A stretch of DNA of 48,843 nt from Nitrososphaerota archaeon. GTDB taxonomy: Archaea > Thermoproteota > Nitrososphaeria > Nitrososphaerales > UBA183. The stretch covers positions 1 to 48,843 of the forward strand of contig JAFLZI010000003.1 in the NCBI GenBank assembly GCA_029785625.1. The letters are read 5' to 3'. The notes beneath the pieces were generated by a model. The model was not told where the DNA came from, made no database searches, and was given only the letters and a program-made list of their open reading frames with translations. Every line of letters begins with the position of its first letter. The first letter of the stretch is position 1. Positions 23,323 to 40,939 of this stretch are shown in pieces. The position numbers and the translations under genes were made by a program.

Positions 23323-25137
23323 CTAGATGCAATCGGCGACGATCTCGGCCACGTCGCGGACGTCCATCCCTGAGTTCGTCACCTTGGTGGTGTCGTCGAA
23401 CATGGAGAGGCAGAACGGGCACTCTGTGGCTATGGTCTTGGCCCCGGTCTTCGCGGCCTCTTCTGTCCTGATCCCCGCTATCGACCTCTGCTGGGGGACC
23501 TTGAACCAGTAGTTCGAGCCTCCGGCGCCGCAGCAGAAGGTCTTCTCCTTCCTCCGCCCCATCTCCCGCAGGTCTTCGACGGAGGCCCCGAGTATCTCCC
23601 TTGGCTGGTCGAACACGCTGTTGTACCTGGAGGCGTAGCAGGCGTCGTGTAGGGTCACGGATATCTTCTGCACCTTCTCTCTGGGGACAGTCACCCTCCC
23701 CTCCCTGATGAGGTCTGAGATCAGCTGGGTGTGGTACACCACGTCGAACTTCCCCCCGAACTGCGGGTACTCGTTCTTCAGGGCGTTGAAGCAGTGGGGG
23801 CAGGTGGCGATGACCTTCTTCACGCCGTAGGAGTTGAGCTTCTCTATGTTCTGGAGGGCCAGCTCCTGGTACCGCCCCTCCTCCCCCAGCCTGCGGGCGG
23901 GGTCGCCGACGCACATCTCCTCGCTCCCGAGGATCGCGAAGGAGACGCCGGCGTGCTTCAGTATCTTCGCGAGGGCCTTCGCTATGCGCTGGGCCCGCTG
24001 GTCGAAGGAGGAGACGCAACCCACCCAGTAGAGGTACTCCGCCTTCGGGTTCGTCGCCAGGGTGTCGATGCCCAGCCCCTCGGCCCAGGCGGCCCTGGTC
24101 GAGTTCTTGAAGCCGTAGGGGTTCTGGGCCCCGGCGAGGTTCGACAGCATTCCGGACTTCTCCTTGTCCAGCTTCCCCTTCGAGACCAGCTCCCTCCGGA
24201 GGTCGTAGATGACGTCCAGGTGCTTCACCCCCACGGGGCAGCTGGCGACGCATGCCCCGCAGGAGGTGCAGGACCAGAGCTCGTCCTCGGCGACTGAGGA
24301 GAACGGGTCAGATCCGCCGCCCGCGTGGGAGAGGAGGCTGACCTTCCTGACAAGGACCCGGGGAGACAGAGGGCGCCCGGCCGCGGTCGCTGGGCAGGAG
24401 GCTTCGCAGGCGCCTATCTCCACGCAGGATGCGAAGGACAGGGACTGGTCTGGGGTGAAATCAGAGACCTTGCCGACCCCCACGCGTATCGCCTCAGGGT
24501 CGGTCTTCCCCGCCATGACGTCGGCCAGGTTGAACGGGGTCCTGAGAGCCGCGAGTGGCCTGTCGAACTTGGCGATGAGGTTGACGCTCGGCCTGGCGTA
24601 GTAGGCCGCGACCAGGGAGTTCCTCAGCGCGTCGATGAGGAAGTCCGCCCAGCCAAGCGCCGGGAACCAGAGGAGGACCAGCTCGGAGGCGGTGAGGGCA
24701 ATGGCGGCCATGAGCACCAGCTGAAGGGCCGTAGAGGCTGACGCGAACCCCTCGGCGACGTGCACCTCCCTCCCCACCCTCCTGCTCTGGAAGTACCTCT
24801 GGACCCGCCATACGAAGGCGACGGCCAGCCCAGCAAACAGCGGGACGGAGGCGACCCGGAAGACGGCGAGGAGCAGCGGCGCCGCGCCCAGGGCCGGCGC
24901 GAGGACCGCGTCCGCCATGGTGAGCCCGACCCCCAGCGCTATGGACAGGTGCATCAAGAAGACGGGGTCCCCGGTCCTCAGCCGGCTCGCCTCGTCTCTT
25001 CCCAGCCCCGCGATGCGCGAGGGGTGGAGGCTGACCGACCACCTGCGGGCCAGGGAGGCGGCCGCAAGGCCCACGGCGGCCACGCTGGCGAAGGAGATCG
25101 CGTAGGCGGCCAGGTACCCGACGTCGAGCCCAGCCAT
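23323..25137 (-). CDS. Membrane-bound EtfD/HdrD-like iron-sulfur oxidoreductase
   Basis: A 604-residue protein. Five or so membrane helices occupy residues 1-185, a two-cluster ferredoxin domain spans about 235-305, and two CCG (heterodisulfide-reductase-type) domains follow. The second ferredoxin motif is complete (C290, C293, C296, C300). The first has C238, C244 and C248 but Ile at 241 where Cys is expected. CCG1 has Cys409-Val in place of Cys-Cys with C446/C449; CCG2 is complete (C500, C535-C536, C573/C576). Beside etfA, etfB and an acyl-CoA dehydrogenase it probably oxidises reduced ETF and passes electrons to quinone. It has its own TATA-like box (25158-25166), 25 bases upstream. Confidence 0.85.
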   Translation of the reverse strand: MAGLDVGYLAAYAISFASVAAVGLAAASLARRWSVSLHPSRIAGLGRDEASRLRTGDPVFLMHLSIALGVGLTMADAVLAPALGAAPLLLAVFRVASVPLFAGLAVAFVWRVQRYFQSRRVGREVHVAEGFASASTALQLVLMAAIALTASELVLLWFPALGWADFLIDALRNSLVAAYYARPSVNLIAKFDRPLAALRTPFNLADVMAGKTDPEAIRVGVGKVSDFTPDQSLSFASCVEIGACEASCPATAAGRPLSPRVLVRKVSLLSHAGGGSDPFSSVAEDELWSCTSCGACVASCPVGVKHLDVIYDLRRELVSKGKLDKEKSGMLSNLAGAQNPYGFKNSTRAAWAEGLGIDTLATNPKAEYLYWVGCVSSFDQRAQRIAKALAKILKHAGVSFAILGSEEMCVGDPARRLGEEGRYQELALQNIEKLNSYGVKKVIATCPHCFNALKNEYPQFGGKFDVVYHTQLISDLIREGRVTVPREKVQKISVTLHDACYASRYNSVFDQPREILGASVEDLREMGRRKEKTFCCGAGGSNYWFKVPQQRSIAGIRTEEAAKTGAKTIATECPFCLSMFDDTTKVTNSGMDVRDVAEIVADCI

Positions 25138-25157
25138 GTTCCGCGCCGACGCTCCTC

Positions 25158-25166
25158 GGTTTATAG
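25158..25166 (-). promoter_or_regulatory. TATA-like box of the EtfD-like gene
   Basis: On the minus strand the sequence ctataaacc is centred 25 bases before the ATG at 25137, inside the 58-base gap after etfA. This gives the EtfD-like gene its own leaderless promoter in addition to possible read-through from etfA. Confidence 0.6.
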
Positions 25167-25195
25167 GCTGTTCGAGGCCCCGGCCGCCTGGCCTG

Positions 25196-26128
25196 TCAAC
25201 GCCGGGCAGACAGTGCGCGCCTGAGGGCGGGTACCACCTGGTAGAGGTCCCCCACTATGCCGTAATCCGACGCCTGGAAGATTGGCGCTTCCTTGTCCGT
25301 GTTTATCGAGGCGACTATCTTCGAGTCCTTTATCCCGGCGACGTGCTGCAGCTGGCCGGAGATCCCCACGGCGAGATAGAGGTCAGGCTTGACCGTGACC
25401 CCGGTCAGCCCGATGTGGTGCTCTTCGGGGAGCCAGCCGAGGTCGGCGGACAGGGGGCGCGAGCACCCCAGGGCCCCGTGCATCGTCGCCGCGAGGTCCT
25501 CCAGCATGGAGAGGTCCTCCTTCTTCTTCACCCCTCTCCCGGCCGATACGATCACCTTCGCCGACCTCAGGTCGACCGCGTCCGCTGCCTTCTTCTCGCG
25601 CCCGACGACCTTCGACTGGTCGGAGACCGGACCCACGTCCTTCTCCTGGGTCTCCCCCGGCTGAGCCTCGGCCCTGGGATAGGCGCCGGTCTTCACCGTG
25701 GCGACCGCCGGGAACTCGCACCTAGTCTTCGCCACCACCTTCCCTGCGAAGACGTTCCTCTCCCCTGTCATCCCCCGGCCGTCGGAAGCGAGCCTCGCAA
25801 CCTCCGCCATGCATCCGACCCCGAGCTTGGCCGCAAGCCTCGACGCCGCCTCCCTCCCGCTCCTCGTCGCCCCCAGGAGGACCGCGATCGGGTGAGAGTC
25901 CTTCGCTGCCCTGGCGAGGGCTTCGGCGGCGACGGCCGGGGTGACATCGGGGCCGACTGGGCCCTTCAGCAGGAGCCTTCCGCCCGGGCCCCTGATCCCC
26001 TGGCGGACCGACCCGATGTCCACGATGCGGACCTCCGCCGAGGCGCCCTTCGCTACCTCCTGGGCAGCCGTCGCCACTTCGCCGGACACCTGCTCCGACT
26101 CGGAGTACACCCAGACCTCCCCGCTCAC
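25196..26128 (-). CDS. etfA: Electron transfer flavoprotein alpha subunit
   Basis: A 310-residue protein. The C-terminal FAD-binding domain begins near residue 185 and carries the signature LYLAVGISGQLQHVAGIKDSKIVASINTDKEAPIFQASDYGIVGDLYQVVP. The alpha subunit with EtfB accepts electrons from acyl-CoA dehydrogenase and delivers them to a membrane quinone reductase. The GTG at 26128 overlaps the etfB TGA (GTGA) and has a purine-rich GGAGG about a dozen bases upstream, suggesting coupled translation in the order acyl-CoA dehydrogenase, etfB, etfA. Confidence 0.96.
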   Translation of the reverse strand: MSGEVWVYSESEQVSGEVATAAQEVAKGASAEVRIVDIGSVRQGIRGPGGRLLLKGPVGPDVTPAVAAEALARAAKDSHPIAVLLGATRSGREAASRLAAKLGVGCMAEVARLASDGRGMTGERNVFAGKVVAKTRCEFPAVATVKTGAYPRAEAQPGETQEKDVGPVSDQSKVVGREKKAADAVDLRSAKVIVSAGRGVKKKEDLSMLEDLAATMHGALGCSRPLSADLGWLPEEHHIGLTGVTVKPDLYLAVGISGQLQHVAGIKDSKIVASINTDKEAPIFQASDYGIVGDLYQVVPALRRALSARR

Positions 26129-26889
26129 TTCAGGACCCCCTCCTTCGAGAGCGCCTCCACGAGCTTCGCGGCCGCCTCGTCAGGGCTCCCCTCGATCATG
26201 ACGTGCTTCCTGGTCGACGGCTGCGACAGCATCGAGACCACCTCGACCCTGCCGGAGCTCCCCCATGGGGCGATTTCCTCGCCGTCGAGCTCCTCGATTG
26301 GCTTCTTGGACGCCTGCATGATCTGGATGAGCGTCGGGTAGCGCGGCTCGTTGATCTCGCTCACCACGGACGCGGCGAAGGGGACGGGCGCTTCTATCAC
26401 CTCGACGCTGTCCTCGAGTGACCGCTCCACCCTCGCTGACTGGCCGGTCACCTCTATCTTCCGGGCGTAGCCGACGTAGGCGACACCGAGAAGCTCCCCG
26501 AGCATCGGAGGCACCTGGCCGGTGTAGGTGTCAGACGCCCCCTCAGAGCATAGGACCACGTCGTAGGGCCCAGACCTCTTGATGGCCGCTGCGAGGATCC
26601 TCGCGGTGCGCAGCGCGTCGATGGCCATCGGGTCCGCGGCCACAATCACCCCCCTGTCTGCGCCCATGGCGAGGGCCTCCTTCAGCGTCTTCTTCGACTC
26701 GGCGGCTCCCACCACGAAGACCACGACCTCTCCCTGGTGGGCGGACTTCAGCCTGAGCCCCTCCTCGACCGCATTCTTGTCGAAGGTGCTCATCTTCCCG
26801 GCTGCGCCGGCGAGGACCGGCCTCCCCCCTGGGTCGAGCCTGAGCTCTGTCTCGTCGACCGCGTGCTTCACGCATACTGCGATCTTCAT
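26125..26889 (-). CDS. etfB: Electron transfer flavoprotein beta subunit
   Basis: A 254-residue protein with the family N-terminus MKIAVCVKHAVDETELRLD and the AMP/nucleotide-binding region GADRGVIVAADPMAIDALRTARILAAAI, plus the DTYTGQVPPMLGELLG motif near residue 125 and VIEAPVPFAASV. It forms the ETF heterodimer with EtfA. ATG at 26889 overlaps the TGA of the acyl-CoA dehydrogenase gene (ATGA) and is preceded by an SD-like GAGGT seven bases upstream. The open frame extends to 27042 but only within the upstream gene. Confidence 0.96.
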   Translation of the reverse strand: MKIAVCVKHAVDETELRLDPGGRPVLAGAAGKMSTFDKNAVEEGLRLKSAHQGEVVVFVVGAAESKKTLKEALAMGADRGVIVAADPMAIDALRTARILAAAIKRSGPYDVVLCSEGASDTYTGQVPPMLGELLGVAYVGYARKIEVTGQSARVERSLEDSVEVIEAPVPFAASVVSEINEPRYPTLIQIMQASKKPIEELDGEEIAPWGSSGRVEVVSMLSQPSTRKHVMIEGSPDEAAAKLVEALSKEGVLK

Positions 26890-28055
26890 TGTGACCTCGC
26901 CAGCTCCCGCCTGGATATCAGCATGCGGAGGACCTCCGACGTCCCTTCGCCGATGGTGAGGAGCCGGGCGTCCCTCCAGTGCCTGTGCAGGTCGTCGGTG
27001 GTGTAGCCGTACCCCCCATGGATCTGGATGGCGTCGTCGCACGCCTTTAGGGACATCTCTGTGGCGTACACCTTGGCCTGAGACGCCTCCGAGGCGTAAT
27101 CGCCCCCCATCTCCTTGATCCTCGAGGCGTACAGGTAGAGGAGCCTGCCGGCGTTGATCCCGATCTTGGTGTCGGCCAGCTTCTCCCTCACGAGCTGGAA
27201 GTCGGCTATGGGCCTGCCGAAGGCGCGCCTCTGCCGAGCGTAGGCCAACGCCTTCCCGTAGGCGAGCTGGGAGATGCCGACGTTGAGGGCCGCGACCACT
27301 ATCCTCGCCCCGTGGAGGATCTCCTTCGCGTAGTCCGCCCCCCTCCCTTCCTCCCCGACCAGGTTCCCCTCGGGGACCCTGCAGTCAGAGAAAATCACTT
27401 CGCGGGTCTTCGAGCCCCTCATCCCAAGCTTCTTCAGCTCCGCGCCGAACTTCAGCCCTGGGCTGGAGGACTCTAGCAGGAAGCAGGAGGGGCCCTTCGA
27501 GGTCTTCGCGAAGACGAGGTAGATGTCCGCCTCCCCGGCGTTGGTAATGAACATCTTCGAGCCGTTGATCGAGTACTCCCCTGCCCGCTTCTCCGCCGAA
27601 GTGGCCATGGTCCCCGCGTCGGAGCCGGACGCAGGCTCCGTCAGCGCGAACGACGCCAGCTTCCTCCCCGAGATTATCGGCGCCAGATGGCGCTCCCGCT
27701 GGGCCTCGGTCCCGAACTTGAGAAGGCCCTCGGCCACGGCGTTGTGTATCTCAACGCTGAGGGCCATGGAGGCGTCGGCCGTGCCGAGGAGCTCCACGGC
27801 AGTGGCATAGACAGAGAAGGGGAGCCCCAGCCCGCCGTACTTGGTCGGGAACGGGATCAGGCTCATCCCCTGGCCGAAGAGGGCGCTCCGGGGTCCCGCC
27901 AACGACGCCTCTCCGGCGTCCAGCTTCGGGGAGAGCGGGAGTATCTCTTTCTCCATGAAAGAGCCCAGGGAAGAGAGGACTTCCGAGTACTCCTGGTGCT
28001 TGGTCGGATGGAACATCTGCATGAGCTGCTTGTGTTCGGCGGTGTAGATCGCCAA
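26886..28055 (-). CDS. Acyl-CoA dehydrogenase (FAD-dependent)
   Basis: A 389-residue flavoenzyme. FASFALTEPASGSDAGTMATSA near residue 130 and KMFITNAGEAD near 165 are the FAD and substrate motifs; RQRRAFGRPIADFQ lies around residue 265, and IHGGYGYTTDDLHRHWRDARLLTIGEGTSEVLR at the C-terminus. The usual catalytic Glu in the GGYGYTxE block is Asp354 here, and the block is one residue short. The isovaleryl-CoA-type Glu is also absent (LHGAR instead of a Leu-Glu-Arg pattern). It should oxidise an acyl-CoA to the 2-enoyl-CoA and reduce ETF. The start is TTG at 28055; the gatttaatc box (28089-28097) leaves a short leader. Confidence 0.92.
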   Translation of the reverse strand: MAIYTAEHKQLMQMFHPTKHQEYSEVLSSLGSFMEKEILPLSPKLDAGEASLAGPRSALFGQGMSLIPFPTKYGGLGLPFSVYATAVELLGTADASMALSVEIHNAVAEGLLKFGTEAQRERHLAPIISGRKLASFALTEPASGSDAGTMATSAEKRAGEYSINGSKMFITNAGEADIYLVFAKTSKGPSCFLLESSSPGLKFGAELKKLGMRGSKTREVIFSDCRVPEGNLVGEEGRGADYAKEILHGARIVVAALNVGISQLAYGKALAYARQRRAFGRPIADFQLVREKLADTKIGINAGRLLYLYASRIKEMGGDYASEASQAKVYATEMSLKACDDAIQIHGGYGYTTDDLHRHWRDARLLTIGEGTSEVLRMLISRRELARSQ

Positions 28056-28146: not shown

Positions 28147-29517
28147 GTGGACCTAGCGGGCCGCCTGGCAGACTACGTGACCTCGACGAAGTTCAGGAGC
28201 ATCGACGCAGTGACGGTCAAGGAGATGAAAGCAAGGGTGGTCGACGCGGTCGGGTGCGCCATAGGGGCGTTCGGCGAGAAGCCCATAGCGATGGCGAGGA
28301 AGGCTGTCCTGGGCCTGAGGAGCGGCGGCCCGTCCAGCGTCATCGGGACAGGCAGGCGGACATCCCCGGACCTCGCCGCCTTCGTGAACGGGTTCATGCT
28401 GCGGTACTTCGACTACAACGATACCTACCTCTCCAGGGAGCCCGCGCACCCGAGCGACAACATCGCTCCGTGCTTCGCGGTGGCGGAGGCGGAGGGGTCG
28501 ACAGGGAAGGAGTTCATCTCGGCGGCGGTGGCCGCCTACGAGGTCCAGTGCAGGCTCTGCGACGCGGCCGACCTGAGGCACCGGGGCTGGGACCACGTCA
28601 ACTACGGCCTGGTGTCGTCTTCGCTCGCTGCGGCGAAGCTGATGGGTCTGGATGCGAAGCGGGCGGAGCAGGCGGTGAACATCGCGGTGAACGGCCACAT
28701 AGCCATGCGCCAGGTCAGGGCCGGCGAGCTGTCCATGTGGAAGGGCGCCTCCTTCGCCAACGCCGCGAGGAACGGGGTCTTCGCTGCGGCCCTGGCCAGG
28801 GACGGGGTGACGGGGCCTTCCCCCGTCTTCGAGGGTGAGATGGGCTTCTTCAGGCAGGTGTCAGGTCCCTTCGACCTCGACGTCAACGGGTTCGGCGGGC
28901 GCGGAGGGGGGTACAAGGTGGCCGAGACCTACGTGAAGTACTGGCCCGCCGAGTATCACGCCCAGTCGGCGGTGTGGGCCGCGCTGGCCGTGAGGGAGGG
29001 GCTGAAGGGCCCCGGGGAAGTGAAGTCGGTCCTGGTCGAGACCCACGAGGCGGGGTACACGATCCTGGGCAAAGACCCCGAGAAGTGGCGCCCGGCGACC
29101 AAGGAGACGGCGGACCACAGCCTGCCATACATCGTTGGCATGGCGCTCCTGGAGGGGAAGATAGACAACGAGACCTACTCTGAGCGGAACATCAGGTCGA
29201 GCCGGAACCTCCGCTTCCTGCAGAGGGTAGAGGTGAAGGAAGACCCCGGCCTGACGGCGCTCTACCCCGCGAAAGGGATGGCCAACAGGGTGACCGTGGT
29301 CACGAGGTCGGGAGCGGTCGTCTCTAAGGAGGTGGACGTCCCCAGAGGGCACCCCCTGGACCCCATGGGGAGGGAGGAGCTGGAGCGGAAGTTCAAGGCG
29401 CTGACGGCTGGGAAGCTCGCCCCACAAAGGGCGAAAGAGCTCCTCGCCCTGCTGTGGAACCTGGAGCAGGTCCGGGACCTCAGGGAAGTGTTCAGCCTGA
29501 CGAAGGTCTCGACATAG
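28147..29517 (+). CDS. MmgE/PrpD-family protein (2-methylcitrate dehydratase-like)
   Basis: A 456-residue protein with the family signatures ARVVDAVGCAIGAFGEKP near residue 28, MLRYFDYNDTYLSREPAHPSDNIAPCFAVAEA near residue 84, and ADHSLPYIVGMALLEG near residue 320. PrpD dehydrates 2-methylcitrate to 2-methyl-cis-aconitate in propionate oxidation; some relatives are iminodisuccinate epimerases or other hydro-lyases. The HPSDN motif supports a dehydratase. No methylcitrate synthase or lyase is in this window. GTG at 28147 is leaderless with the box 26 bases upstream. The divergent, promoter-sharing acyl-CoA dehydrogenase suggests a link to odd-chain or branched-chain acyl-CoA breakdown, which yields propionyl-CoA. 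Confidence 0.85.
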   Translation: MDLAGRLADYVTSTKFRSIDAVTVKEMKARVVDAVGCAIGAFGEKPIAMARKAVLGLRSGGPSSVIGTGRRTSPDLAAFVNGFMLRYFDYNDTYLSREPAHPSDNIAPCFAVAEAEGSTGKEFISAAVAAYEVQCRLCDAADLRHRGWDHVNYGLVSSSLAAAKLMGLDAKRAEQAVNIAVNGHIAMRQVRAGELSMWKGASFANAARNGVFAAALARDGVTGPSPVFEGEMGFFRQVSGPFDLDVNGFGGRGGGYKVAETYVKYWPAEYHAQSAVWAALAVREGLKGPGEVKSVLVETHEAGYTILGKDPEKWRPATKETADHSLPYIVGMALLEGKIDNETYSERNIRSSRNLRFLQRVEVKEDPGLTALYPAKGMANRVTVVTRSGAVVSKEVDVPRGHPLDPMGREELERKFKALTAGKLAPQRAKELLALLWNLEQVRDLREVFSLTKVST

Positions 29518-29563
29518 CTCAAGGCTGTCTCACCTATATCATCGACCGGGGCGCCCCCTGGTC

Positions 29564-30337
29564 ATGGAGTCCGAGGAGCTCCTCAGGGAGGCGTTCGGGC
29601 TGAACTCCTACGAGTCGAAGCTCTACATCGCCCTCCTCGGCCGGGGGATGAAGGCGGGGGAGGCGGCCCAGGCGTCGGGGGTCCCACAGTCGAGGACCTA
29701 CGACACCCTGCGCTCCCTGGAGCAGAAGGGGTTCGTGGTGGAGTCGGACGGCGTCTACGAGTCAGCGACCCCCTCGGCTGCCCTCGGGTCGAGGGTTGCG
29801 AAGTTCGTCTCAGACTTTGAGGCGGGGCTCGCAGGGAAGCAGTCCGCGATGCGGAAGATAGTCGGGGAGTTGGAGCCGCTCTCGCGGCCGGAGGCAGGGG
29901 AGCAGGAGCCTGTGATGCTGAAGGGGCTCGATGGCATCGCAGCCGCGTTCCTCGAGGTCCTGCGCAGCTCGGATGACGCCTTCCTCCTTGTCAGGAAGGG
30001 GCTGGCGGCCAAGGCCGCGTTCCTGGGGGTCCTGAAGCAGGCGGGCAGGAGGCCGAAGAGGGTGAAACTCCTGATCCCGGCGAACCAGAGGCTCTCCAAG
30101 GTCGAGCTGCTGGAGGCTGAGAGCCAGGGGTTGGAGGTCCGCCGCTCCGACGGCGTCCTCCTCGACATGATGGCCGGGGACCGGGGCGGGGTCATCATCG
30201 GGGTGCCGGCGAGGGGGAGGGACGAGTCCTTCGCAGCCGTCGCCATCTGGGTGAGGAGCCCGTCCTTCGCCCTGTCCGTGATGGAGTCCCTAGGCCAGCA
30301 GTGGAGGGCCGCCAGGCCCCTTCGGGGCAACCCCTAA
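29564..30337 (+). CDS. TrmB-family transcription regulator
   Basis: A 257-residue protein. The N-terminal 75 residues form a TrmB-type winged helix (FGLNSYESKLYIALLGRGMKAGEAAQASGVPQSRTYDTLRSLEQKGFVVE), a helical linker follows, and the C-terminal half resembles the TrmB/phospholipase-D-like sensor fold (KRVKLLIPANQRL). Such regulators usually sense a small molecule and bind palindromes near promoters. Its TAA overlaps the start of a perfect palindrome (30337-30358) placed immediately before the next gene, so it is the prime candidate to bind that site and its twin at 32284. ATG at 29564 has cctatatcatc (29532-29542) about 26 bases upstream. Confidence 0.87.
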   Translation: MESEELLREAFGLNSYESKLYIALLGRGMKAGEAAQASGVPQSRTYDTLRSLEQKGFVVESDGVYESATPSAALGSRVAKFVSDFEAGLAGKQSAMRKIVGELEPLSRPEAGEQEPVMLKGLDGIAAAFLEVLRSSDDAFLLVRKGLAAKAAFLGVLKQAGRRPKRVKLLIPANQRLSKVELLEAESQGLEVRRSDGVLLDMMAGDRGGVIIGVPARGRDESFAAVAIWVRSPSFALSVMESLGQQWRAARPLRGNP

Positions 30338-30358
30338 TTACCACTCGCCAGTGGTAAT
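30337..30358. promoter_or_regulatory. Perfect palindrome before the LLM-class oxidoreductase gene (operator candidate, copy 1)
   Basis: Arms ATTACCACT and AGTGGTAAT are exact inverses, nine bases each, around the spacer CGCC. The site ends 3 bases before the ATG at 30362, and the expected TATA position (taatta, 30335-30340) overlaps its left arm. A protein bound here would block transcription. A copy with two substitutions lies at 32284-32305 before the prenyltransferase gene. The site is next to a TrmB-like gene. Confidence 0.8.
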
Positions 30359-30361
30359 CGT

Positions 30362-31351
30362 ATGAGGCTCGCCCTGGGTTACAACCCGGTGCTCAGCGTA
30401 CAGGACGCGGTGGCTCAGGCGTCGCGCGCGGAATCCCTCGGCTACGACTCGGTCTGGATGCACGAGAGCCTGTACCAGAGGGACGTGGTCACCTACATCT
30501 CGGCGATGGCGTCCGGGACCAAGAGGATCGGGCTCGGCTCCGGAGTGATCAATACCTTCACCCGCCACCCGGTGACCGCGGCGACCACCTTCGCCACGCT
30601 CTCCGAGCTGTCAGGGGGGAGGGTGACCCTGGGGCTCGGTCTCGGGAGCTTCCCCACCATCCCGCTCATAGGGCAGAAGATATTCCCGGTCGCCGAGACC
30701 AAGCCGATCCGCAGGATAAAGGAGTACGTCGAGGTGGTCAAGTCTGTCTGGGAGGGGGGGAAGGTCGACTTCGACGGCGACTTCTTCCAGGTGCACGGAC
30801 TGACCCTGGGCTTCAGGGTCGACCGCAGGGTGCCGATCTTCGTGGCGTCCCTTTCGCCCAAGACCCAGGAGTTCGCGGCCACGGTCGCCGACGGAGTGAT
30901 ACTCGCCCCCGCGCTGGGCACCGCGCTGGCGACGCAGAAGATGGTGGAGAACGTCAGGCGCGGGGAAGCGAAGAGGGGCCGCGGCGTGGAGAGGGCGTCC
31001 TACCTTCTGACTTCGGTAGACAGGGACCCCGCGAAGGCGGCCAAGGCCGTGAGGGACTACTACTTCTTCGCCTATCAGCTGGCCGAAGTCGTCAAGCCCG
31101 AGTCGCTCTCGCCCTACGGGGTGGAGGAGGAGGACCTGAGGCCGATGAAGGAGGCGTGGCGGAGTGGGGACGAAGCGGAGGCGAGGAGGCTGATCCCCGA
31201 AGCGGCGGTCGAAGCCCTCACGGTCACGGGGACCCCCGACCACGCGCTAGGCAGGGTGGACGAGTACAGGAAGGCAGGCATCACCCTCCCAATCCTCATG
31301 CCGATAGGCGACGTTGACTACGCCGTGAACGAGCTCGCGCCGGGCGGCTAG
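30362..31351 (+). CDS. LLM-class F420-type oxidoreductase
   Basis: A 329-residue luciferase-like monooxygenase-fold protein (TIM barrel). The order of motifs is RAESLGYDSVWMHESLY near residue 22, RIGLGSGVINTFTRHPVTAA near residue 58 and SGGRVTLGLGLGS near residue 82, as in methylenetetrahydromethanopterin reductase and other F420-dependent enzymes. Cofactor and substrate cannot be fixed from sequence; F420 is likely in archaea. The start ATG at 30362 lies 4 bases after a palindromic operator candidate. It converges on the MenA-like gene with a 4-base overlap, and both carry the same operator, suggesting joint regulation by the adjacent TrmB-like protein. Confidence 0.85.
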   Translation: MRLALGYNPVLSVQDAVAQASRAESLGYDSVWMHESLYQRDVVTYISAMASGTKRIGLGSGVINTFTRHPVTAATTFATLSELSGGRVTLGLGLGSFPTIPLIGQKIFPVAETKPIRRIKEYVEVVKSVWEGGKVDFDGDFFQVHGLTLGFRVDRRVPIFVASLSPKTQEFAATVADGVILAPALGTALATQKMVENVRRGEAKRGRGVERASYLLTSVDRDPAKAAKAVRDYYFFAYQLAEVVKPESLSPYGVEEEDLRPMKEAWRSGDEAEARRLIPEAAVEALTVTGTPDHALGRVDEYRKAGITLPILMPIGDVDYAVNELAPGG

Positions 31352-32277
31352 ACCACGGGCAGGTAGATGGAGAGGACCAGGGACGCCATGTACAGCAAGG
31401 CGAACTGCAGTGCCAGGGCCGCGGTCTTCGGGTCGGCGTTGTCCGGTATCGGCCCCCTGAACATCCTCCAGAGCTGGATGGCCCCCGGGAGCGTGAGCAG
31501 GACGAGGAGCGACCAGGCGCTGACGAAGCGCGACAGCACCTCCCCCAGGACGAAGGCATAGGCCAGCGCGAGCAGCCATCCGTAGACCCTGGAGGCCGCC
31601 TTCTCCCCCAGCCGGACCGCGACCGTCCTAGTGTCGACCGAGCCGTCGTAGCCGATGTCCCTGATGTTGTTCGCGAGGAGGACCAGGGCGACGAAGAGGC
31701 CGATGGGGACGGCCCCCGCCATCGGAACCCAGGAGAACCCCCGGGCCTGCACCATGTAGGCGCCCAGGGGGATGAGGAGCCCCCACATCACGAACACCGT
31801 CGCTTCCCCCGCCCCCCTCGCCTTCAGGACGATCGGGTCGGCGGTGTAGAGGACGCTCCCCAGCACCCCCGCGCCCGTGATCAGCAGGATCGCCGGCCCG
31901 GAGACCGTCGACAGGTAGGCGGCAGCCGCCAGGGTGACGGCGTAGAGGCCCAGAGAGAAGCCGAGTATCGTCGAGAGAGGGACGTCCCCTGCGGCGCCCG
32001 GGTGCAGCCTGTACTTCGTCGTAGGCGCCCCCTCCTTGTCCACGCCGTGCTTCACGTCATAGTAGTCGTTGAGGATGTTGGTCGCCGCATGGAAGGCGAC
32101 CATCCCCCCCAGGGTCACGAAGTAGAGCGGGAGGTCGACCTTCCCCGCGAGGGCGGCGAGGAGGGCGCCCATGGTGACCGAGGAGAAGGTCATTGTGAAC
32201 GACCAGGGCCTGGCCGAGAGGAAAGCGGTCCTGACTCCGAGGCGGCGGCCGCCTCCCCCGGTTCTTCTGGTGAGCAT
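31348..32277 (-). CDS. UbiA-family prenyltransferase, MenA-like
   Basis: A 309-residue membrane protein with about eight or nine helices. RPWSFTMTFSSVTMGALLA near the start, NILNDYYDVKHGVD (first Asp-rich motif, near residue 88) and LANNIRDIGYDGSVDTRTVAVRLG (second motif, near residue 202) match MenA, which attaches a polyprenyl chain to 1,4-dihydroxy-2-naphthoate. This would supply menaquinone for the EtfD-like and other membrane enzymes; other UbiA substrates are possible. ATG at 32277 lies 6 bases downstream (on the minus strand) of the second palindromic operator; ttattac at about 32303-32309 serves as TATA box. No other menaquinone gene is in the window. Confidence 0.87.
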   Translation of the reverse strand: MLTRRTGGGGRRLGVRTAFLSARPWSFTMTFSSVTMGALLAALAGKVDLPLYFVTLGGMVAFHAATNILNDYYDVKHGVDKEGAPTTKYRLHPGAAGDVPLSTILGFSLGLYAVTLAAAAYLSTVSGPAILLITGAGVLGSVLYTADPIVLKARGAGEATVFVMWGLLIPLGAYMVQARGFSWVPMAGAVPIGLFVALVLLANNIRDIGYDGSVDTRTVAVRLGEKAASRVYGWLLALAYAFVLGEVLSRFVSAWSLLVLLTLPGAIQLWRMFRGPIPDNADPKTAALALQFALLYMASLVLSIYLPVV

Positions 32278-32283
32278 GCCTCG

Positions 32284-32305
32284 ATTACCACTCGCCGGTG
32301 GTAGT
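32284..32305. promoter_or_regulatory. Near-copy of the palindromic operator, before the MenA-like gene (copy 2)
   Basis: Arms ATTACCACT (32284-32292) and GGTGGTAGT (32297-32305) flank the same CGCC spacer as copy 1; 20 of 22 positions are identical. The site lies 6 bases before the minus-strand ATG at 32277 and overlaps its TATA region. Conservation of the non-symmetric spacer suggests recent duplication or strong constraint. Confidence 0.78.
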
Positions 32306-32398
32306 AATAAGATTGGCAGGGCGCTTCGCGGGGAGAGTTCCTGGCCCGGCGGCGGGCTTGCGATGGGGATTTAACGCCGGCGGCCCCGGCGGCGCGAG

Positions 32399-33016
32399 TT
32401 GAGCAAGAGGCAAAGGGCCGCGCTGGGGCTGGCGGTAGTGGCGGCAGGGATGGCCCCGCTCTTCGTCCTCCCCAAGGGAGACTTCGCGCTGTCGACGTTC
32501 ATAGCCACAGGGTGCATGGCCGCTGTGGCCGTGGCCTCAGGCGGGTACCGCAGGCTGTTCGCCCCCCGCGCCTGGACCCTGGCCCTGGGGCTGGTCGCGG
32601 CCGCAGGGCTCTACGCGCTCTTCTATGCCGGGAACATGGCCATAGCAGCGTTCCACCCCCTCGGCGTCGGGACTCAGGCTGAGACGTCCATCTACGCCCT
32701 GATCGCGTCTTCGGGGAACCCGCTCCCTCTCCAGGTCCTCGTCCTGGCCTGCGACTCCCTCGGCTTCGAGTCGTACTTCAGAGGGACGCTGCAGGCGCTC
32801 GCCACGCCCAGGCTCGGGGGTGCGGCCCCCTTCGCGGTGGCAGCCGTGGACGCGCTGATCCACGCCGCGAGCTTCAACCTCCTCTGGGTGGTGGCGACAT
32901 TCATGGCTGACTCGGTCTGGGGGCTCACCTACTACCGGACGGGGGACCTGAGCTCGAGCGTGCTCAGCCACTTCGTGTGGGACGTCGCGATATTCATGGT
33001 CGCTCCGATAGGGTGA
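32399..33016 (+). CDS. CPBP-family intramembrane metalloprotease homologue
   Basis: A 205-residue protein with five to six predicted membrane helices. The motifs are ACDSLGFESYFRGTLQAL near residue 120 (family form EExxxR, here Glu-Ser-Tyr-Phe-Arg with a single Glu), DALIHAASFNLLW near residue 158 and SSSVLSHFVWDVAIF near residue 190. CPBP proteins include CAAX prenyl proteases and bacteriocin-immunity proteins; many have no proven substrate. One Glu of the usual pair is replaced by Ser, though the second Glu is retained. TTG at 32399 is leaderless, with gatttaacg (32369-32377) centred about 26 bases upstream. Confidence 0.75.
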   Translation: MSKRQRAALGLAVVAAGMAPLFVLPKGDFALSTFIATGCMAAVAVASGGYRRLFAPRAWTLALGLVAAAGLYALFYAGNMAIAAFHPLGVGTQAETSIYALIASSGNPLPLQVLVLACDSLGFESYFRGTLQALATPRLGGAAPFAVAAVDALIHAASFNLLWVVATFMADSVWGLTYYRTGDLSSSVLSHFVWDVAIFMVAPIG

Positions 33017-33078
33017 GCGCCGCAGGGGCGGTCCGATCCGCCTCGGCTCGCTTATAACGGCCGGAAAGCCGCGGGGGC

Positions 33079-35043
33079 GTGAAGCCAATGCCTGAAGGAA
33101 GGTTGCTCTGGGAGCCCGACCCGAGCTTCGTCAGGAAGACAGCCATGACGGCCTACACGAATTGGCTGGGGAAGAGGGGCTTCAGCTTCGAAGGGTACGA
33201 CGAGCTCTGGCGGTGGTCGGTGGACGATCTGGAAGGGTTCTGGGGATCCATCTGGAAGTACTTCGACGTGGCCGGCGCCGACTATCCGGTGCTGGCGGAG
33301 AGGAAGATGCCCGGCGCGAAGTGGTTCGAGGGGGCCGAGCTCAACTTCACTGAGCGCGTCTTCGCCAAGGAGAGGGAGGGGGCGGCCCTCGTGTGCAGAG
33401 GAGAGCGGGGCTCGGAGAAGGAGGTCTCCTGGCAGGAGCTCGAGAGGAAGACGGCCGCCCTGGCAAGGAGGCTGAGGGATCTCGGAGTGGTACGAGGGGA
33501 CAGGGTGGCCGGATTCCTTTCGAACGGGCCCGAGGCGGTGGTGGGGCTCCTGGCCGCCGCGAGCGTCGGCGCCATCTGGTCCGGCTGTCCCCCCGAGTTC
33601 GGGGCCCAGGCGGTCGTGGACAGGTTCGGCCAGATAGAGCCGAAGGTGCTGATCGCCGCCGACGGCTACGGCTACGGCGGGAAGTGGACCGACAGGGCGG
33701 ACGAGGTCGCATCCATAGTGAAGGCGGTCCCAAGCGTAGAGAAGGTCATCGCCGTGTCTGGAGGGAGCAAGGGGCGCGGGATATCAGGCGCGGAGGCCTG
33801 GGAGGACGCAGCCGGAGCCAGGGCTGAGTTCGACCACGAGTTCGTCCCCTTCGAGCAGCCGCTCTGGGTCCTGTACTCGTCCGGGACCACGGGGCTCCCG
33901 AAGCCGATAGTGCACTCGCAGGGAGGGATCCTTGTCGAGCTCCTGAAGGCCTTGGCCCTCCACAACGACATAAGGGCGGGGGACCGCTTCTTCTGGTACA
34001 CCACCACCGGGTGGATGATGTGGAACTACCTCGTGGGGGGCCTGCTGCACGGCGCCACCCTCGTCCTCTACAACGGCCACCCCGCCTGGCCCCACCCAGA
34101 CTCCCTGTGGTCCGTGATGGAGGAGACCAAGACGACGTACATGGGCACCAGCGCAGCCTACATCTCCGCCTGCATGAAGGCGGGGGTCGAGCCTCGGAGC
34201 GCCTTCAGGCTGGGCTCGCTGAGGGGGATAGGCTCGACCGGGTCCCCCCTCTCGACGGACGGGTTCGAGTGGGTGTACGCCAAGGTGAAGGACGATGTGT
34301 GGCTCGAGTCGCTGAGCGGGGGGACGGACGTCTGCACCGCTTTCGTCACAGGGTCCCCGACCCTCCCGGTGCACTCCGGGGAGCTGCAGTGCAGGGCGCT
34401 TGGCGCCAGCATCCAGGCCTTCGACGAGAACGGGACCGCGGTCGTCGGCAAGGTCGGGGAGCTTGTCGTCACCGAGCCCATGCCGAGCATGCCCGTCTTC
34501 TTCTGGGGGGACGACGACGGGAGCAGGTACAGGGAGAGCTACTTCGACGCGTACCCGGGGGTCTGGAGGCATGGGGACTGGATAAAGGTGACCAGCCGAG
34601 GGACGTGCATAATCTACGGCCGCTCAGACGCCACGATCAAGAGGCAGGGGGTGAGGATAGGCACCAGCGAAATCTACAAGGCGGTCGAGAAGATCCCTGA
34701 GGTTTCCGACTCCATGGCTGTCGACGTGACGAAGGGAGGGGCCGAGGAGATGGTCCTGTTCGTGTCCCTCAAGGAGGGAGAGCCCCTGGACGATGAGCTG
34801 GTAGCCAAGATCAGGGCGCAGATCAGGGCCGACCTCTCGCCGCGCTACCTCCCAGACAGGGTGGTCGCGGTGCCAGCGATTCCCCGGACCCTCAACGGGA
34901 AGAAGCTCGAAGTGCCGGTGAAGAGGATCCTCGCGGGGGCGGACCCGGAGAAGGTCCTGAACATCGGTTCCCTTGCCGACCCTGCGTCCATGGAATATTT
35001 CGTGAAGCTCGCCAGGGGGCCCCCGGCCGGCGCCGGCGGCTAG
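33079..35043 (+). CDS. Acetoacetyl-CoA synthetase
   Basis: A 654-residue AMP-forming acyl-CoA synthetase. The N-terminal LWEPDPSFVRKTAMTAYTNWLG and the length match acetoacetyl-CoA synthetases. The ATP loop is LYSSGTTGLPKPIVH near residue 268, a GGTDVCTAF block follows near 417, and the C-terminal hinge and lysine are in KRQGVRIGTSEIYK and RTLNGKKLEVPVK. It activates acetoacetate or a related short 3-oxoacid with CoA, giving substrate for the thiolases nearby. GTG at 33079 is leaderless with cttataacgg (33051-33060) 25 bases upstream; an ATG three codons later is the alternative. Confidence 0.9.
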   Translation: MKPMPEGRLLWEPDPSFVRKTAMTAYTNWLGKRGFSFEGYDELWRWSVDDLEGFWGSIWKYFDVAGADYPVLAERKMPGAKWFEGAELNFTERVFAKEREGAALVCRGERGSEKEVSWQELERKTAALARRLRDLGVVRGDRVAGFLSNGPEAVVGLLAAASVGAIWSGCPPEFGAQAVVDRFGQIEPKVLIAADGYGYGGKWTDRADEVASIVKAVPSVEKVIAVSGGSKGRGISGAEAWEDAAGARAEFDHEFVPFEQPLWVLYSSGTTGLPKPIVHSQGGILVELLKALALHNDIRAGDRFFWYTTTGWMMWNYLVGGLLHGATLVLYNGHPAWPHPDSLWSVMEETKTTYMGTSAAYISACMKAGVEPRSAFRLGSLRGIGSTGSPLSTDGFEWVYAKVKDDVWLESLSGGTDVCTAFVTGSPTLPVHSGELQCRALGASIQAFDENGTAVVGKVGELVVTEPMPSMPVFFWGDDDGSRYRESYFDAYPGVWRHGDWIKVTSRGTCIIYGRSDATIKRQGVRIGTSEIYKAVEKIPEVSDSMAVDVTKGGAEEMVLFVSLKEGEPLDDELVAKIRAQIRADLSPRYLPDRVVAVPAIPRTLNGKKLEVPVKRILAGADPEKVLNIGSLADPASMEYFVKLARGPPAGAGG

Positions 35044-35089
35044 CGAGATTCGGAAGCAGATTAATACCCGCATTTTCAGCGAAAAGACC

Positions 35090-36442
35090 GTGCCGGAACA
35101 GAGGAAGGTCTACATGGTCTCCGGCGGGGTGACCAAGTTCGCGAAGGCCCACCCGGATATGGACTTCCGGCTTATGGTGAAGCGAGCCTTCGACTACGCC
35201 ATGAAGGACGTCCCCGACCTGCGGACTTCCGACATCGAAAGCAGTAGGATATCGTACTTCTCAGACCACTTCGCCCGGCAGCTGAAGGCGGCTTCCATGG
35301 TCCAAGACTACCTGGGGCTTAACCCGAGGGACTCGAGGAGGATCGAGTGGGGAGGGGCGACGGGAGGTCAGGCCATCCAGGCGGGCTGGGAGGCGGTGGC
35401 CAGCGGAAGGAACGAGGTGTGCCTGGTCGCCGGGTTCGAGACGATGTCGCACGTCGAGACGTGGAAGGGGAACGAGTTCATCGCCCTCGCCTCGGACACC
35501 AACTTCGACTATCCGGTGGGAGGGTTCTACACCGGGTATTACGCGCTGATGGTCCAGCGGCACATCTACGAGTACCTGAGGAAGACGAAGTTCGCTCACA
35601 TCAAGGACGAGAAGAAGGCGCAGAGGGCGGCCACCGAGGAGGCGAAGAGGATCATGGCCATGGTGTCTGTGAAGAACCACGTCAACGCGCAGCACAACCC
35701 CTACTCGCAGTACCCTGAGAAGCTGACGATGAAGGAGGCCCTCGGGAGGGAGATGGTCGCCTACCCGCTGAACAGGCCCATGATCTGCACCATGAGCGAC
35801 GGGGCCGCTGTCGCGATACTCGCCTCCGAAGACGTCGCTTTCAAGTACACGGACCACCCGGTGCTGATCAAGGGGGTCGGGTGCGGCACCGACACCATGA
35901 GGCTGGCGGACAGGCCCCACGGGAGCGTGCCGCTGTTCGCTTGGGAGAAGGCGGAGCACTACTCCGACCTGAAGTACCCGGGGGTCCACTCGTTCCGCGC
36001 GGGGAGGGCCGCCGCCCTCGAAGCGTACAAGAACGCCGGCGTGAAGGATCCGAAGAAGGAGCTGGACTTCGTCGAGCTCCACGACGCCTACGCGAGCTCC
36101 GAGATACAGACCTACGAGGACATCGGGCTCTGCGAGTACGGCGAAGGATACGACTTTGTCGACCAGGGGCACCCGTTCCTCGAAGGGATGGACTACGGGC
36201 TCGACCTCCCCCACAGAGGGACGGTCCCGGTCAACCCGTCTGGGGGGCTGATCGCCTGCGGCCATCCGGTGGGTGCGACCGGGATAATGCAGGGGGTCTT
36301 CGCGTTCTGGCAGCTGCAGGGTAGCATCGGGAGGCACTTCGGGAACGAAAGGCTGCAGATCAGGAACGCGAAGCGCGGGCTCATCCACTCCCACGCCGGG
36401 ACCGGGAGCTCGGTGACCGTCACGATAATGGAGAGGGCGTAG
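35090..36442 (+). CDS. Thiolase-fold (SCPx-like) protein lacking the nucleophilic Cys
   Basis: A 450-residue thiolase-superfamily protein of the archaeal/SCPx branch. Where active thiolases have ACASGG, this protein reads GGATGG with Gly89 in place of Cys. Other motifs are kept: VELHDAYASSEIQTYEDIGL with Tyr334, and ACGHPVGATG with His392. The next gene, 1 base after its stop, encodes a DUF35 zinc-ribbon/OB protein, the usual partner of this branch. Loss of the Cys makes thiolytic cleavage through an acyl-enzyme unlikely. A retro-aldol activity like that of steroid side-chain aldolases, or a scaffold role, is possible. GTG at 35090 is leaderless with ttaatac 26 bases upstream. Confidence 0.85.
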   Translation: MPEQRKVYMVSGGVTKFAKAHPDMDFRLMVKRAFDYAMKDVPDLRTSDIESSRISYFSDHFARQLKAASMVQDYLGLNPRDSRRIEWGGATGGQAIQAGWEAVASGRNEVCLVAGFETMSHVETWKGNEFIALASDTNFDYPVGGFYTGYYALMVQRHIYEYLRKTKFAHIKDEKKAQRAATEEAKRIMAMVSVKNHVNAQHNPYSQYPEKLTMKEALGREMVAYPLNRPMICTMSDGAAVAILASEDVAFKYTDHPVLIKGVGCGTDTMRLADRPHGSVPLFAWEKAEHYSDLKYPGVHSFRAGRAAALEAYKNAGVKDPKKELDFVELHDAYASSEIQTYEDIGLCEYGEGYDFVDQGHPFLEGMDYGLDLPHRGTVPVNPSGGLIACGHPVGATGIMQGVFAFWQLQGSIGRHFGNERLQIRNAKRGLIHSHAGTGSSVTVTIMERA

Positions 36443-36443
36443 A

Positions 36444-36977
36444 TTGGCCGCGCCGAAGAAGTTCTCGAAGTTCAGGGACGTGATGAAGGAGGTCAACGCC
36501 AAGGGCGCCGCCATCTACAGGAACCCGGTGGGGACGGAGGACCTGGTCATACTTTCCCCGTACACCGTCAAGTACATCCACAGCTACGCCGAGGACTCGC
36601 CTTTCTTCCTGGGGCTGGCCGAGGGGAAGCTGATGGGGAGCGAGTGCAAGACCTGCCGCTACCGGTACGCCACGCCGCGTAGCCACTGCATGAACTGCGG
36701 CGGCGAGACCAAGTGGTTCACGCTCCCGAAGGAAGGGCACGTCCACTCTTGGACCACCTGCTACTACGGGGGCGAGGAGTTCCTCAAGGAGACGCCGTTC
36801 AACCTGGCGCTCGTGGAGTTCGACGGCGTGGACACCCTCTTGTTGACGAGGCTGAAGGGAGCCAAGGAGGCGGACATCTTCATCGGGATGAAGGTAAAGG
36901 CTGTGTTCCGCGACTCACCCAGGTACCTCATCTCTGACGTGCACTTCGTGCCTTCGGAGAAGACAAGGAAGAAGTGA
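36444..36977 (+). CDS. DUF35 OB-fold protein with zinc ribbon, partner of the thiolase-like protein
   Basis: A 177-residue protein. A helical N-terminus is followed by a rubredoxin-like zinc ribbon (CKTCRYRYATPRSHCMNC near residues 70-87) and an OB-fold (VHSWTTCYYGGEEFLKETPFNLALVEFDGVDTLLLTRL). DUF35 proteins form complexes with thiolases, HMG-CoA synthase or SCPx-like aldolases and help channel CoA esters. TTG at 36444 lies 1 base after the stop of the thiolase-like gene, so the pair should be made together. Both Cys pairs are intact, so zinc binding is expected. Confidence 0.9.
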   Translation: MAAPKKFSKFRDVMKEVNAKGAAIYRNPVGTEDLVILSPYTVKYIHSYAEDSPFFLGLAEGKLMGSECKTCRYRYATPRSHCMNCGGETKWFTLPKEGHVHSWTTCYYGGEEFLKETPFNLALVEFDGVDTLLLTRLKGAKEADIFIGMKVKAVFRDSPRYLISDVHFVPSEKTRKK

Positions 36978-36985
36978 GCCGGGCC

Positions 36986-37900: not shown

Positions 37901-37992
37901 GGCTGAACTCGGGCCAGAGAGGACGGTATTTAGGGACAGCGCTCTTCTTTAACCGGTTCCGTTTAAACGAAGCAGCGTTGAAGCCCAGCGGC

Positions 37993-40834: not shown

Positions 40835-40939
40835 GGGCCACGGATGCCCCCAAACTTGCCTTAAGGATATCCCCCCGGGCGCCGGAGCGGCGCTCTAGGC
40901 TTAAGTATGGACGGCCACGGTGTTGAATCGGACCCGAAT

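What the first reader, a model, noticed from the sequence alone, without database searches (positions are those of the whole stretch)
30337..32305. Twin palindromic operators in front of two convergent genes beside a TrmB-like regulator
ATTACCACT and AGTGGTAAT form a perfect inverted repeat around CGCC at 30337-30358, ending 3 bases before the LLM oxidoreductase ATG. The same sequence with two substitutions lies at 32284-32305, 6 bases before the MenA-like ATG. Even the asymmetric spacer is conserved. Both cover the expected TATA/start region. The TrmB-like gene ends on copy 1. This looks like a compact regulon joining an F420-type enzyme and a prenyltransferase that are not known to share a pathway, possibly a quinone or prenylated-cofactor route.
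Basis: partly seen in the sequence, partly recalled or inferred. Interest (0 to 1): 0.75.

Follow-up and report, generated by a model that had tools for sequence, protein, structure and literature searches.

The report
Predicted archaeal quinone-gene operator pair
Two near-identical palindromes in this archaeal genome are very probably docking sites through which a neighbouring regulator of the TrmB family switches quinone (vitamin K-type) synthesis genes; the same site guards quinone genes in several related archaeal families, and it points to an unassigned flavin/F420-type enzyme as a new player in that pathway.

Summary
In detail: the palindrome lies 3 bases before the LLM-oxidoreductase ATG and a two-mismatch copy 6 bases before the MenA-like ATG; these are the only two close matches in the 1.94-Mb genome. 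Comparison with relatives supports a real regulon and extends it. All 9 loci with the TrmB-like gene next door carry the palindrome at both promoters; of 21 LLM loci without it, 2 carry it at LLM and none at MenA. In other families of the order the operator (TTACCAC-N6-GTGGTAA) stands at menaquinone genes: MqnC/MqnE, MenF/MenC, UbiA, LLM/MenG. Over 300 genomes regulator and palindrome co-occur (16 of 22 palindrome genomes; Fisher 6e-15, phylogeny uncorrected). Best reading: a TrmBL2-fold repressor of quinone synthesis. Binding, ligand and direction are inferred. Exceptions: two palindrome genomes lack a clear regulator orthologue; five regulator genomes show no close site at a quinone gene. 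Unexpected: the LLM orthologue and known head-group pathways (MenD, MqnA/D) never co-occur in 29 genomes (0 of 20 against 7 of 9), hinting at an unrecognised route. The spacer is not conserved among relatives.

The parts
30337..30358 (.). operator copy 1 (perfect 9-bp inverted repeat, N4 spacer) before the LLM gene; 20-bp core at -24..-5 from the ATG
32284..32305 (.). operator copy 2 (2 mismatches to copy 1) before the MenA-like gene; 20-bp core at -27..-8 from the ATG
29564..30337 (+). TrmB-family regulator, TrmBL2-like full length (wHTH + PLD-like C-terminal domain); stop codon overlaps operator 1
30362..31351 (+). LLM-class (luciferase-like, Mer-like, F420-type) oxidoreductase; candidate quinone-pathway enzyme
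   Evidence: PF00296 226 bits; Mer models below their cut-offs; six of the seven PDB sequences matched are Mer
31348..32277 (-). MenA-like UbiA-family prenyltransferase
   Evidence: PF01040 100.6 bits; MenA models hit below cut-off; only PDB sequence matched is UBIAD1
30332..30339 (+). TATA-like element CCCTAATT directly upstream of, and running into, operator 1
   Evidence: sequence; same arrangement at sites in relatives. Recognised by eye, not tested functionally
32305..32312 (-). TATA-like element TCTTATTA (gene strand) directly upstream of operator 2
   Evidence: sequence. Recognised by eye, not tested functionally
32399..33016 (+). CPBP/Rce1-like membrane protease, frequent neighbour of the LLM-UbiA pair; not itself under an operator copy
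   Evidence: PF02517; neighbour in most of the relatives' loci
23323..28055 (-). neighbouring electron-transfer block: CCG/4Fe-4S protein, ETF alpha, ETF beta, acyl-CoA dehydrogenase; a likely quinone-reducing partner (recalled), not under the operator
   Evidence: Pfam; genes of the same sizes and order beside the LLM gene in relatives (not searched by family there)

Best explanation
The palindrome TTACCAC-N6-GTGGTAA is the operator of a TrmB-family, TrmBL2-shaped repressor, probably dimeric, encoded next door (trmB-like, 29564-30337). Bound between the TATA-like box and the transcription start, it would block RNA polymerase recruitment at genes of respiratory quinone (menaquinone-type) synthesis: here the MenA-like prenyltransferase and an LLM oxidoreductase, and in related families the futalosine (MqnC/MqnE), classical (MenF/MenC), prenyltransferase (UbiA/MenA) and LLM/MenG promoters. 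A quinone-linked signal sensed by its PLD-like C-terminal domain probably lifts repression. Shown by sequence: the sites, their rarity, their conservation, their position beside a TATA-like stretch, their co-occurrence with the regulator, and the family of the downstream genes. Inferred: binding by this protein, repression rather than activation, the ligand, and the product quinone.
For: (1) Own genome: only these two sites at <=2 mismatches. (2) Among 30 LLM loci of relatives, the 9 with the trmB-like gene adjacent have the palindrome at LLM at the same place (-24, 0-2 mismatches) and before MenA (0-4 mismatches); of the 21 without it, 2 have it at LLM (L025, L031) and none of the 19 with a UbiA homologue has it there; in 3000 shuffled pieces 9 had 4 mismatches or fewer. 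(3) 300 genomes of the order: palindrome (<=1 mismatch) in 22, regulator orthologue (E<=1e-30) in 27, both in 16; Fisher 5.7e-15; 1.1e-8 without the own genus; not corrected for phylogeny. (4) Of those 24 sites, 18 stand at LLM, UbiA, Mqn or Men genes (one through a PAS gene followed by UbiA). (5) Sites with 2-3 mismatches in regulator-bearing genomes again precede such genes: LLM in G044, G088, G099, G062, G134; UbiA in G099, G062; MenF/MenC in G127; MqnC/MqnE in G097. (6) Family assignment: MqnC/MqnE-type, MenF, MenC, MenD, MenG, MenH, MK decarboxylase, MqnA/MqnD family PF02621. (7) The regulator gene itself adjoins quinone genes: G097 (UbiX, TIGR03701, UbiE-like), G040 (UbiE-like), G036 (UbiA), G030/G181 (PqqD-like, radical SAM, UbiA); the two UbiE-like matches are below cut-off. 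(8) A site 3' of BRE/TATA goes with repression in TrmB-family members (PMC4158304, passages).
Against: No binding or expression data. G032 and G046 carry the palindrome before LLM and Mqn genes but have no clear orthologue of the regulator (best 73 and 63 bits against 330-355 for G000 and G052); G046 is 89% complete, G032 95%. Five regulator-bearing genomes (G036, G049, G071, G078, G085) show no close site before a recognised quinone gene; G049 and G036 have only 5-mismatch matches at LLM (59 of 3000 shuffles reach 5 or fewer), and the G036 UbiA gene runs off its contig. G030 has its site at another operon and only a 5-mismatch match at LLM. The Mqn and Men sites are not always directly 3' of an obvious TATA box, and in G052 the site overlaps the inferred LLM start. 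Sites were found by half-site similarity, so the half-site conservation in the 32-site tally is partly by construction. Genomes are related, so p-values overstate independence; within the genus the contrast may rest on one or two events. The own genome has neither MenD over cut-off nor MqnA/MqnD, so 'menaquinone' there is extrapolated.
Confidence: 0.78

Rival explanations
1. The palindrome is a genuine quinone-gene operator, but a different transcription factor encoded elsewhere binds it; the TrmB-like gene is a passenger neighbour.
For: G032 and G046 have sites at LLM and Mqn promoters without a clear orthologue of the regulator. In several genomes the regulator is far from the sites. No other regulator family was tested for co-occurrence.
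Against: Presence of the regulator tracks the sites across the order and, inside the genus, adjacent regulator and both sites come and go together. The regulator gene itself sits beside quinone genes in several genera.
Confidence: 0.13
2. The inverted repeats act in RNA (hairpin, attenuator, or terminator of trmB).
For: Copy 1 begins at the trmB stop codon and is a perfect inverted repeat.
Against: Half-site letters themselves are conserved (1.1-2.0 bits at 14 of 16 columns, 0.65-0.68 at the two inner ones, partly by construction) and changes in one arm are often not matched in the other (half-site self-complementarity 0.84 over 32 sites). Position next to a TATA-like stretch holds across families. 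No T-run follows copy 1, and copy 2 is not at the end of a recognised gene.
Confidence: 0.03
3. The TrmB-like protein is an activator, or a dual regulator, rather than a repressor at these promoters.
For: TrmBL1 and Tgr act both ways depending on site position (PMC4158304 passages). At some Mqn and Men sites the divergent arrangement allows either reading.
Against: At LLM, MenA and most UbiA promoters the site lies 3' of the TATA-like stretch, the repressing position in that review.
Confidence: 0.2
4. Fortuitous duplication of a short sequence with no function.
For: Only two copies; short.
Against: Conserved at the same position over diverged genomes with variable spacer, and found before analogous genes in families f1, f5, f9, f11, f14 and f17.
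Confidence: 0.01

Closest known systems
TrmBL2 of Pyrococcus furiosus (chromatin protein / repressor)
   Same: Full-length sequence-profile match and fold: wHTH, long helix, PLD-like domain
   Different: TrmBL2 is described as abundantly expressed and involved in chromatin architecture (PMC4877046, abstract in search listing); here close sites are few per genome and mostly at quinone genes. NCBIfam TrmBL2 equivalog cut-off not met (56 of 530 bits)
TrmBL1 / Tgr (TGM motif TATCAC-N5-GTGATA) and TrmB (TACT-N3-AGTA)
   Same: TrmB-family wHTH; palindromic operator; 3' of BRE/TATA at promoters repressed by TrmBL1/Tgr (PMC4158304 passages)
   Different: Different operator (TTACCAC-N6-GTGGTAA) and a quinone rather than sugar regulon; no Regulator_TrmB (sugar-binding) Pfam match among those listed at E<=1e-3
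OxsR of Haloferax volcanii
   Same: TrmB-family regulator outside sugar metabolism, redox-related (PMC9426492 passages)
   Different: Single-domain protein, CG-rich motif CGGnCGnGCG, thiol-based, oxidative-stress regulon
Futalosine (Mqn) and classical (Men) menaquinone pathways
   Same: Mqn and Men promoters carry the same operator in G040, G046, G097, G035 and G127
   Different: The window's genome has neither MenD over cut-off nor MqnA/D; LLM is in neither pathway as known to me (recalled)

Membership tests
TrmB family (PF01978) | TrmB wHTH domain over curated cut-off | tested here: met
   53.1 bits, cut-off 25.6, residues 7-63
TrmB family (PF01978) | PLD-like C-terminal effector domain | tested here: met
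TrmB family (PF01978) | sugar-responsive regulation of sugar genes | tested here: inconclusive
   most close operator copies precede quinone-type genes; none of those examined was at a recognised sugar gene; ligand not testable
TrmBL2 equivalog (NF041141) | NCBIfam cut-off 530 bits | tested here: not met
   56.1 bits
MenA (TIGR00751) | curated cut-off 102.15 bits | tested here: not met
   79.6 bits; UbiA PF01040 met. Called MenA-like only
Mer, methylene-H4MPT reductase (TIGR03555 / NF002619) | curated cut-offs 348.7 / 276 bits | tested here: not met
   163.7 / 177.5 bits
Co-regulated regulon with a shared operator | site conserved before orthologous genes in relatives | tested here: met
   9 of 9 loci with adjacent regulator at both promoters; of 21 loci without, 2 at LLM and 0 at MenA
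Co-regulated regulon with a shared operator | direct binding of the regulator | not testable with these tools
   needs gel shift or ChIP

The most novel reading that the evidence does not exclude
The shared operator marks the quinone regulon, and the LLM oxidoreductase is part of a third, undescribed route that stands in for the futalosine and MenD pathways. In 29 genomes the LLM orthologue (20 genomes) never co-occurs with MenD or MqnA/MqnD, while 7 of the 9 genomes without it have one of those. The swap is seen inside one genus (g7: G035 and G127 with MenD, G134 with LLM) and inside family f14 (G097 with Mqn, G049 and G062 with LLM). Of these six regulator-bearing genomes, five (all but G049) keep the operator, at 1-3 mismatches, at the pathway they have.
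Probability: 0.35. Interest if true: 0.82.

Novelty: new variant of a known kind. Interest (0 to 1): 0.62.

Why it matters
TrmB-family regulators are described mainly for sugar metabolism, with chromatin and oxidative-stress roles added later. A TrmB-family regulon for respiratory quinone synthesis would be a new physiological role. In my searches (an open-licence PMC library, listings with titles and abstract starts) no archaeal menaquinone regulator turned up; most subscription-journal papers were not covered. The operator is also a discovery tool: it names candidate members of the pathway (LLM oxidoreductase, a PAS protein, an SsuA-type ABC transporter). Together with the mutual exclusion of LLM and MenD/Mqn it makes testable the question of how these uncultured Thaumarchaeota obtain their quinone head group.

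Tried and rejected
Terminator or RNA-hairpin reading: rejected. Autoregulation: the best palindrome in 29400-29600, around the trmB-like start, has 6 mismatches, which many shuffled pieces reach, so not supported. Class-wide search (400 genomes, many of them the same as): outside the order one site in 37 genomes (G312), inside an ORF; two more hits in family f10 lie inside an unrelated ORF (G383) or over the 3' end of one and 76 bp before a small ORF (G417); so no evidence of the regulon outside the order. A regulator homologue in a Marsarchaeota G1 record (L227, 40% identity) has no palindrome within 4 mismatches in the stretch held. Sites in G036 (in a trpG-like ORF, named by eye), G082:C78, G283, G093 and G179 fall inside ORFs of my simple ORF caller and are treated as chance; G134:C37, two sites in G078 and one in G085 have no assigned gene. 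The sites with 3 mismatches were looked at only in part. The contexts of the 16 control (reversed-pattern) sites were not examined. MenD matches below cut-off: those in G082, G088, G103 and G052 (128, 111, 88, 91 bits) score 382-465 bits as acetolactate synthase types and are not MenD; the weaker ones were not checked. The upstream-of-LLM printout was wrong for minus-strand loci; it was redone and only that is used. One search stopped with a script error part-way; one search covered the remaining sites by another script. Literature searches for an archaeal menaquinone regulator gave nothing relevant. Organism: records with close regulator homologues are mostly Thaumarchaeota/Nitrososphaerota MAGs, some titled Nitrososphaerales; calling the order Nitrososphaerales and f8/f10 ammonia-oxidiser-like is my inference, not a test.
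Full report
CHECK OF THE OBSERVATION. The palindrome ATTACCACT-CGCC-AGTGGTAAT is at 30337-30358, three bases before the LLM ATG (30362). A copy with two substitutions is at 32284-32305, six bases before the MenA-like ATG (32277, minus strand). The trmB-like stop codon overlaps copy 1 by one base, and the two genes are convergent with a 4-bp overlap. No match at up to 3 mismatches appears in 100 dinucleotide shuffles of the window. In the whole genome (1.94 Mb, 20 contigs) the 22-mer at up to 3 mismatches is found only at these two places.

CONSERVATION IN THE GENUS. In 30 LLM loci from relatives (L003-L032; one search listed 43 matches and gave loci for these 30), measured on the correct strand, all 9 loci with the regulator next door have the palindrome at LLM at exactly -24 with 0-2 mismatches, and before MenA with 0-4 mismatches. 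For six of the nine MenA genes the start inferred by alignment lies some 60-80 bp downstream of the palindrome; in all six a possible ATG directly follows the palindrome. Of the 21 loci without an adjacent regulator, 2 have a site at LLM (L025=G032, 1 mismatch; L031=G052, 2 mismatches; G052 has the regulator elsewhere), 3 have 5-mismatch matches at -28 to -30 (L029, L030, L032, all from genomes with the regulator elsewhere), and the other 16 have 6 or more. None of the 19 with a UbiA homologue has a match better than 7 mismatches there. In 3000 composition-shuffled 180-base pieces the best match had 4 mismatches in 9 and 5 in 50, none fewer. Many promoters without the operator show a plain TATA-like GCTTAAAGC instead. 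By the LLM tree the regulator label needs about 3 changes on 28 rows, so this within-genus contrast may be only one or two events.

CONSERVATION IN THE ORDER. TTACCACT-N4-AGTGGTAA at up to 1 mismatch occurs in 22 of 300 genomes of the order, at 24 places. Eighteen stand at LLM, UbiA, Mqn or Men genes (one, G134:C16, at a PAS gene followed by UbiA), four lie inside unrelated ORFs (G036, G283, G093, G179), one precedes an SsuA-type ABC transporter (G052) and one precedes only a possible small ORF (G134:C37). The reversed control pattern gives 16 places, in families f8 and f10 and none in f1, f5, f9, f11, f14 or f17; their contexts were not examined. The regulator orthologue (E<=1e-30) is in 27 of 300; both are in 16. 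Fisher 5.7e-15, 1.1e-8 without the own genus, 1.4e-5 within it; these ignore shared ancestry. G103, counted as lacking the regulator, has a fragment of it at a contig end. By hand tally over, 34 of the 43 sites with up to 2 mismatches in the 30 genomes precede or lie between LLM, UbiA, Mqn or Men genes. The nine others are G082:C78 and G036:C235 (inside ORFs), G134:C37, G078 (two) and G085 (no assigned gene), G071 (a PAS gene), and G052:C5 and G062:C6 (before transport binding-protein genes). Those genomes were chosen for carrying the regulator or the palindrome, not for the gene context.

WHAT THE SITES CONTROL. In G040, G046 and G097 the site lies between divergent MqnC- and MqnE-type radical SAM genes (in G046 and G097, the ones scanned, the best models, MqnC or MqnE, are below cut-off; they also match CofH-type models), with MqnA and MqnD (PF02621) beside them in G040 and G046 and a PF02621 gene downstream in G097. 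In G127 it lies between MenF and MenC with MenD next to MenF; in G035 it lies in a cluster with MenA-, MenE-, MenH- and MenD-type genes, before a MenC-like gene named by eye. In G082 and G103 it lies between LLM and MenG/UbiE. In G082, G088, G099 and G062 it precedes a UbiA gene. In G044, G088, G099, G052, G032, G062 and G134 it precedes the LLM gene. In G030 and G181 it stands between the regulator gene and a PqqD-like, radical SAM, UbiA operon. The regulator gene itself adjoins quinone genes: UbiX, a TIGR03701 menaquinone decarboxylase (572 bits, cut-off 495.9) and a UbiE-like gene in G097; a UbiE-like gene in G040; UbiA in G036.

MECHANISM. Over 32 sites the consensus is TTACCAC-N6-GTGGTAA, with half-sites near-invariant (partly by construction) and spacer free. 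At LLM, MenA and most UbiA promoters the site directly follows a TATA-like stretch (for example CCCTAA, ATCTTAATA, GATTTTAAA, GGCTTAA, GACCTTAAA) and ends close before, or at, the start codon; distances are longer in G044, G082 and at UbiA of G088 (18-43 bp). The TrmB-family review states that sites 3' of BRE/TATA go with repression and sites 5' with activation (PMC4158304, passages seen). I therefore predict repression by blocking polymerase recruitment, relieved by an unknown quinone-linked signal. Binding, direction and ligand are inferred. In the window an ETF / acyl-CoA dehydrogenase / CCG-4Fe4S block lies beside the regulon; such proteins can feed electrons to quinone (recalled).

AN UNEXPECTED PATTERN. 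The own genome and the LLM-bearing relatives searched have neither MenD over cut-off nor MqnA/MqnD. Over the 29 genomes searched for all three, the LLM orthologue (455 bits or more, G134 in two pieces; next paralogues 263 or less) is in 20, none of which has MenD or MqnA/D. Of the 9 without it, 7 have one (Fisher 2.3e-5; 9e-4 on 16 genomes with near relatives thinned). The strongest below-cut-off MenD matches in LLM genomes (G082, G088, G103, G052) are acetolactate-synthase types. The two genomes with neither LLM nor a known pathway are G071 and G078. G043 and G045 count as 'known' on a single PF02621 match each. The exchange is visible within genus g7 and family f14, and the operator follows the pathway in five of those six genomes. 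This suggests that LLM marks another route to a quinone head group, or another quinone; it is correlation only.

LIMITS. Two palindrome-bearing genomes (G032, G046) have no clear regulator orthologue, and five regulator-bearing genomes show no close site at a recognised quinone gene. Many genomes are incomplete. No experiment was possible. Papers: PMC4158304, PMC9426492, PMC3914697 and PMC10640624 were seen as passages only; PMC4877046 only as an abstract start in a search listing.

Noticed in passing
L066 (G035) and L162/L181 (G127): Classical men genes (MenD; MenF and MenC in G127; MenA-, MenE-like and MenH in G035) in genomes of this Thaumarchaeota order, whereas PMC3914697 (2014, passage seen) found the classical pathway among archaea only in Euryarchaeota.
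   Followed up: partly
L065:7127-9430 (G052): Perfect operator 4 bp before an SsuA-family substrate-binding protein gene with permease and (by sequence) ATPase: a candidate importer of a quinone precursor in a genome without MenD or MqnA/D.
   Followed up: partly
L140:2069-2429 (G134) and L251:5592-5949 (G071): Similar small PAS-domain proteins from different families both begin at the operator; the one in G134 is followed by UbiA.
   Followed up: no
L257:4469-5751 (G062): A 2-mismatch palindrome immediately before a Peripla_BP_6 substrate-binding protein gene; may be chance.
   Followed up: no
L139:7006-7025 (G134): Perfect palindrome with no annotated gene; a short membrane-like ORF may follow, read by eye.
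   Followed up: no
window 28147-42061: MmgE/PrpD, acetoacetate-CoA ligase, thiolase/OB-fold pair, another thiolase and an acyl-CoA ligase surround the regulon; genes of matching size and order lie around the LLM gene in several relatives.
   Followed up: no
L227:7642-8743 (Marsarchaeota G1 record): A homologue of the regulator (40% identity) beside a Rieske-like small protein (my reading of the sequence, not searched), without the palindrome.
   Followed up: no
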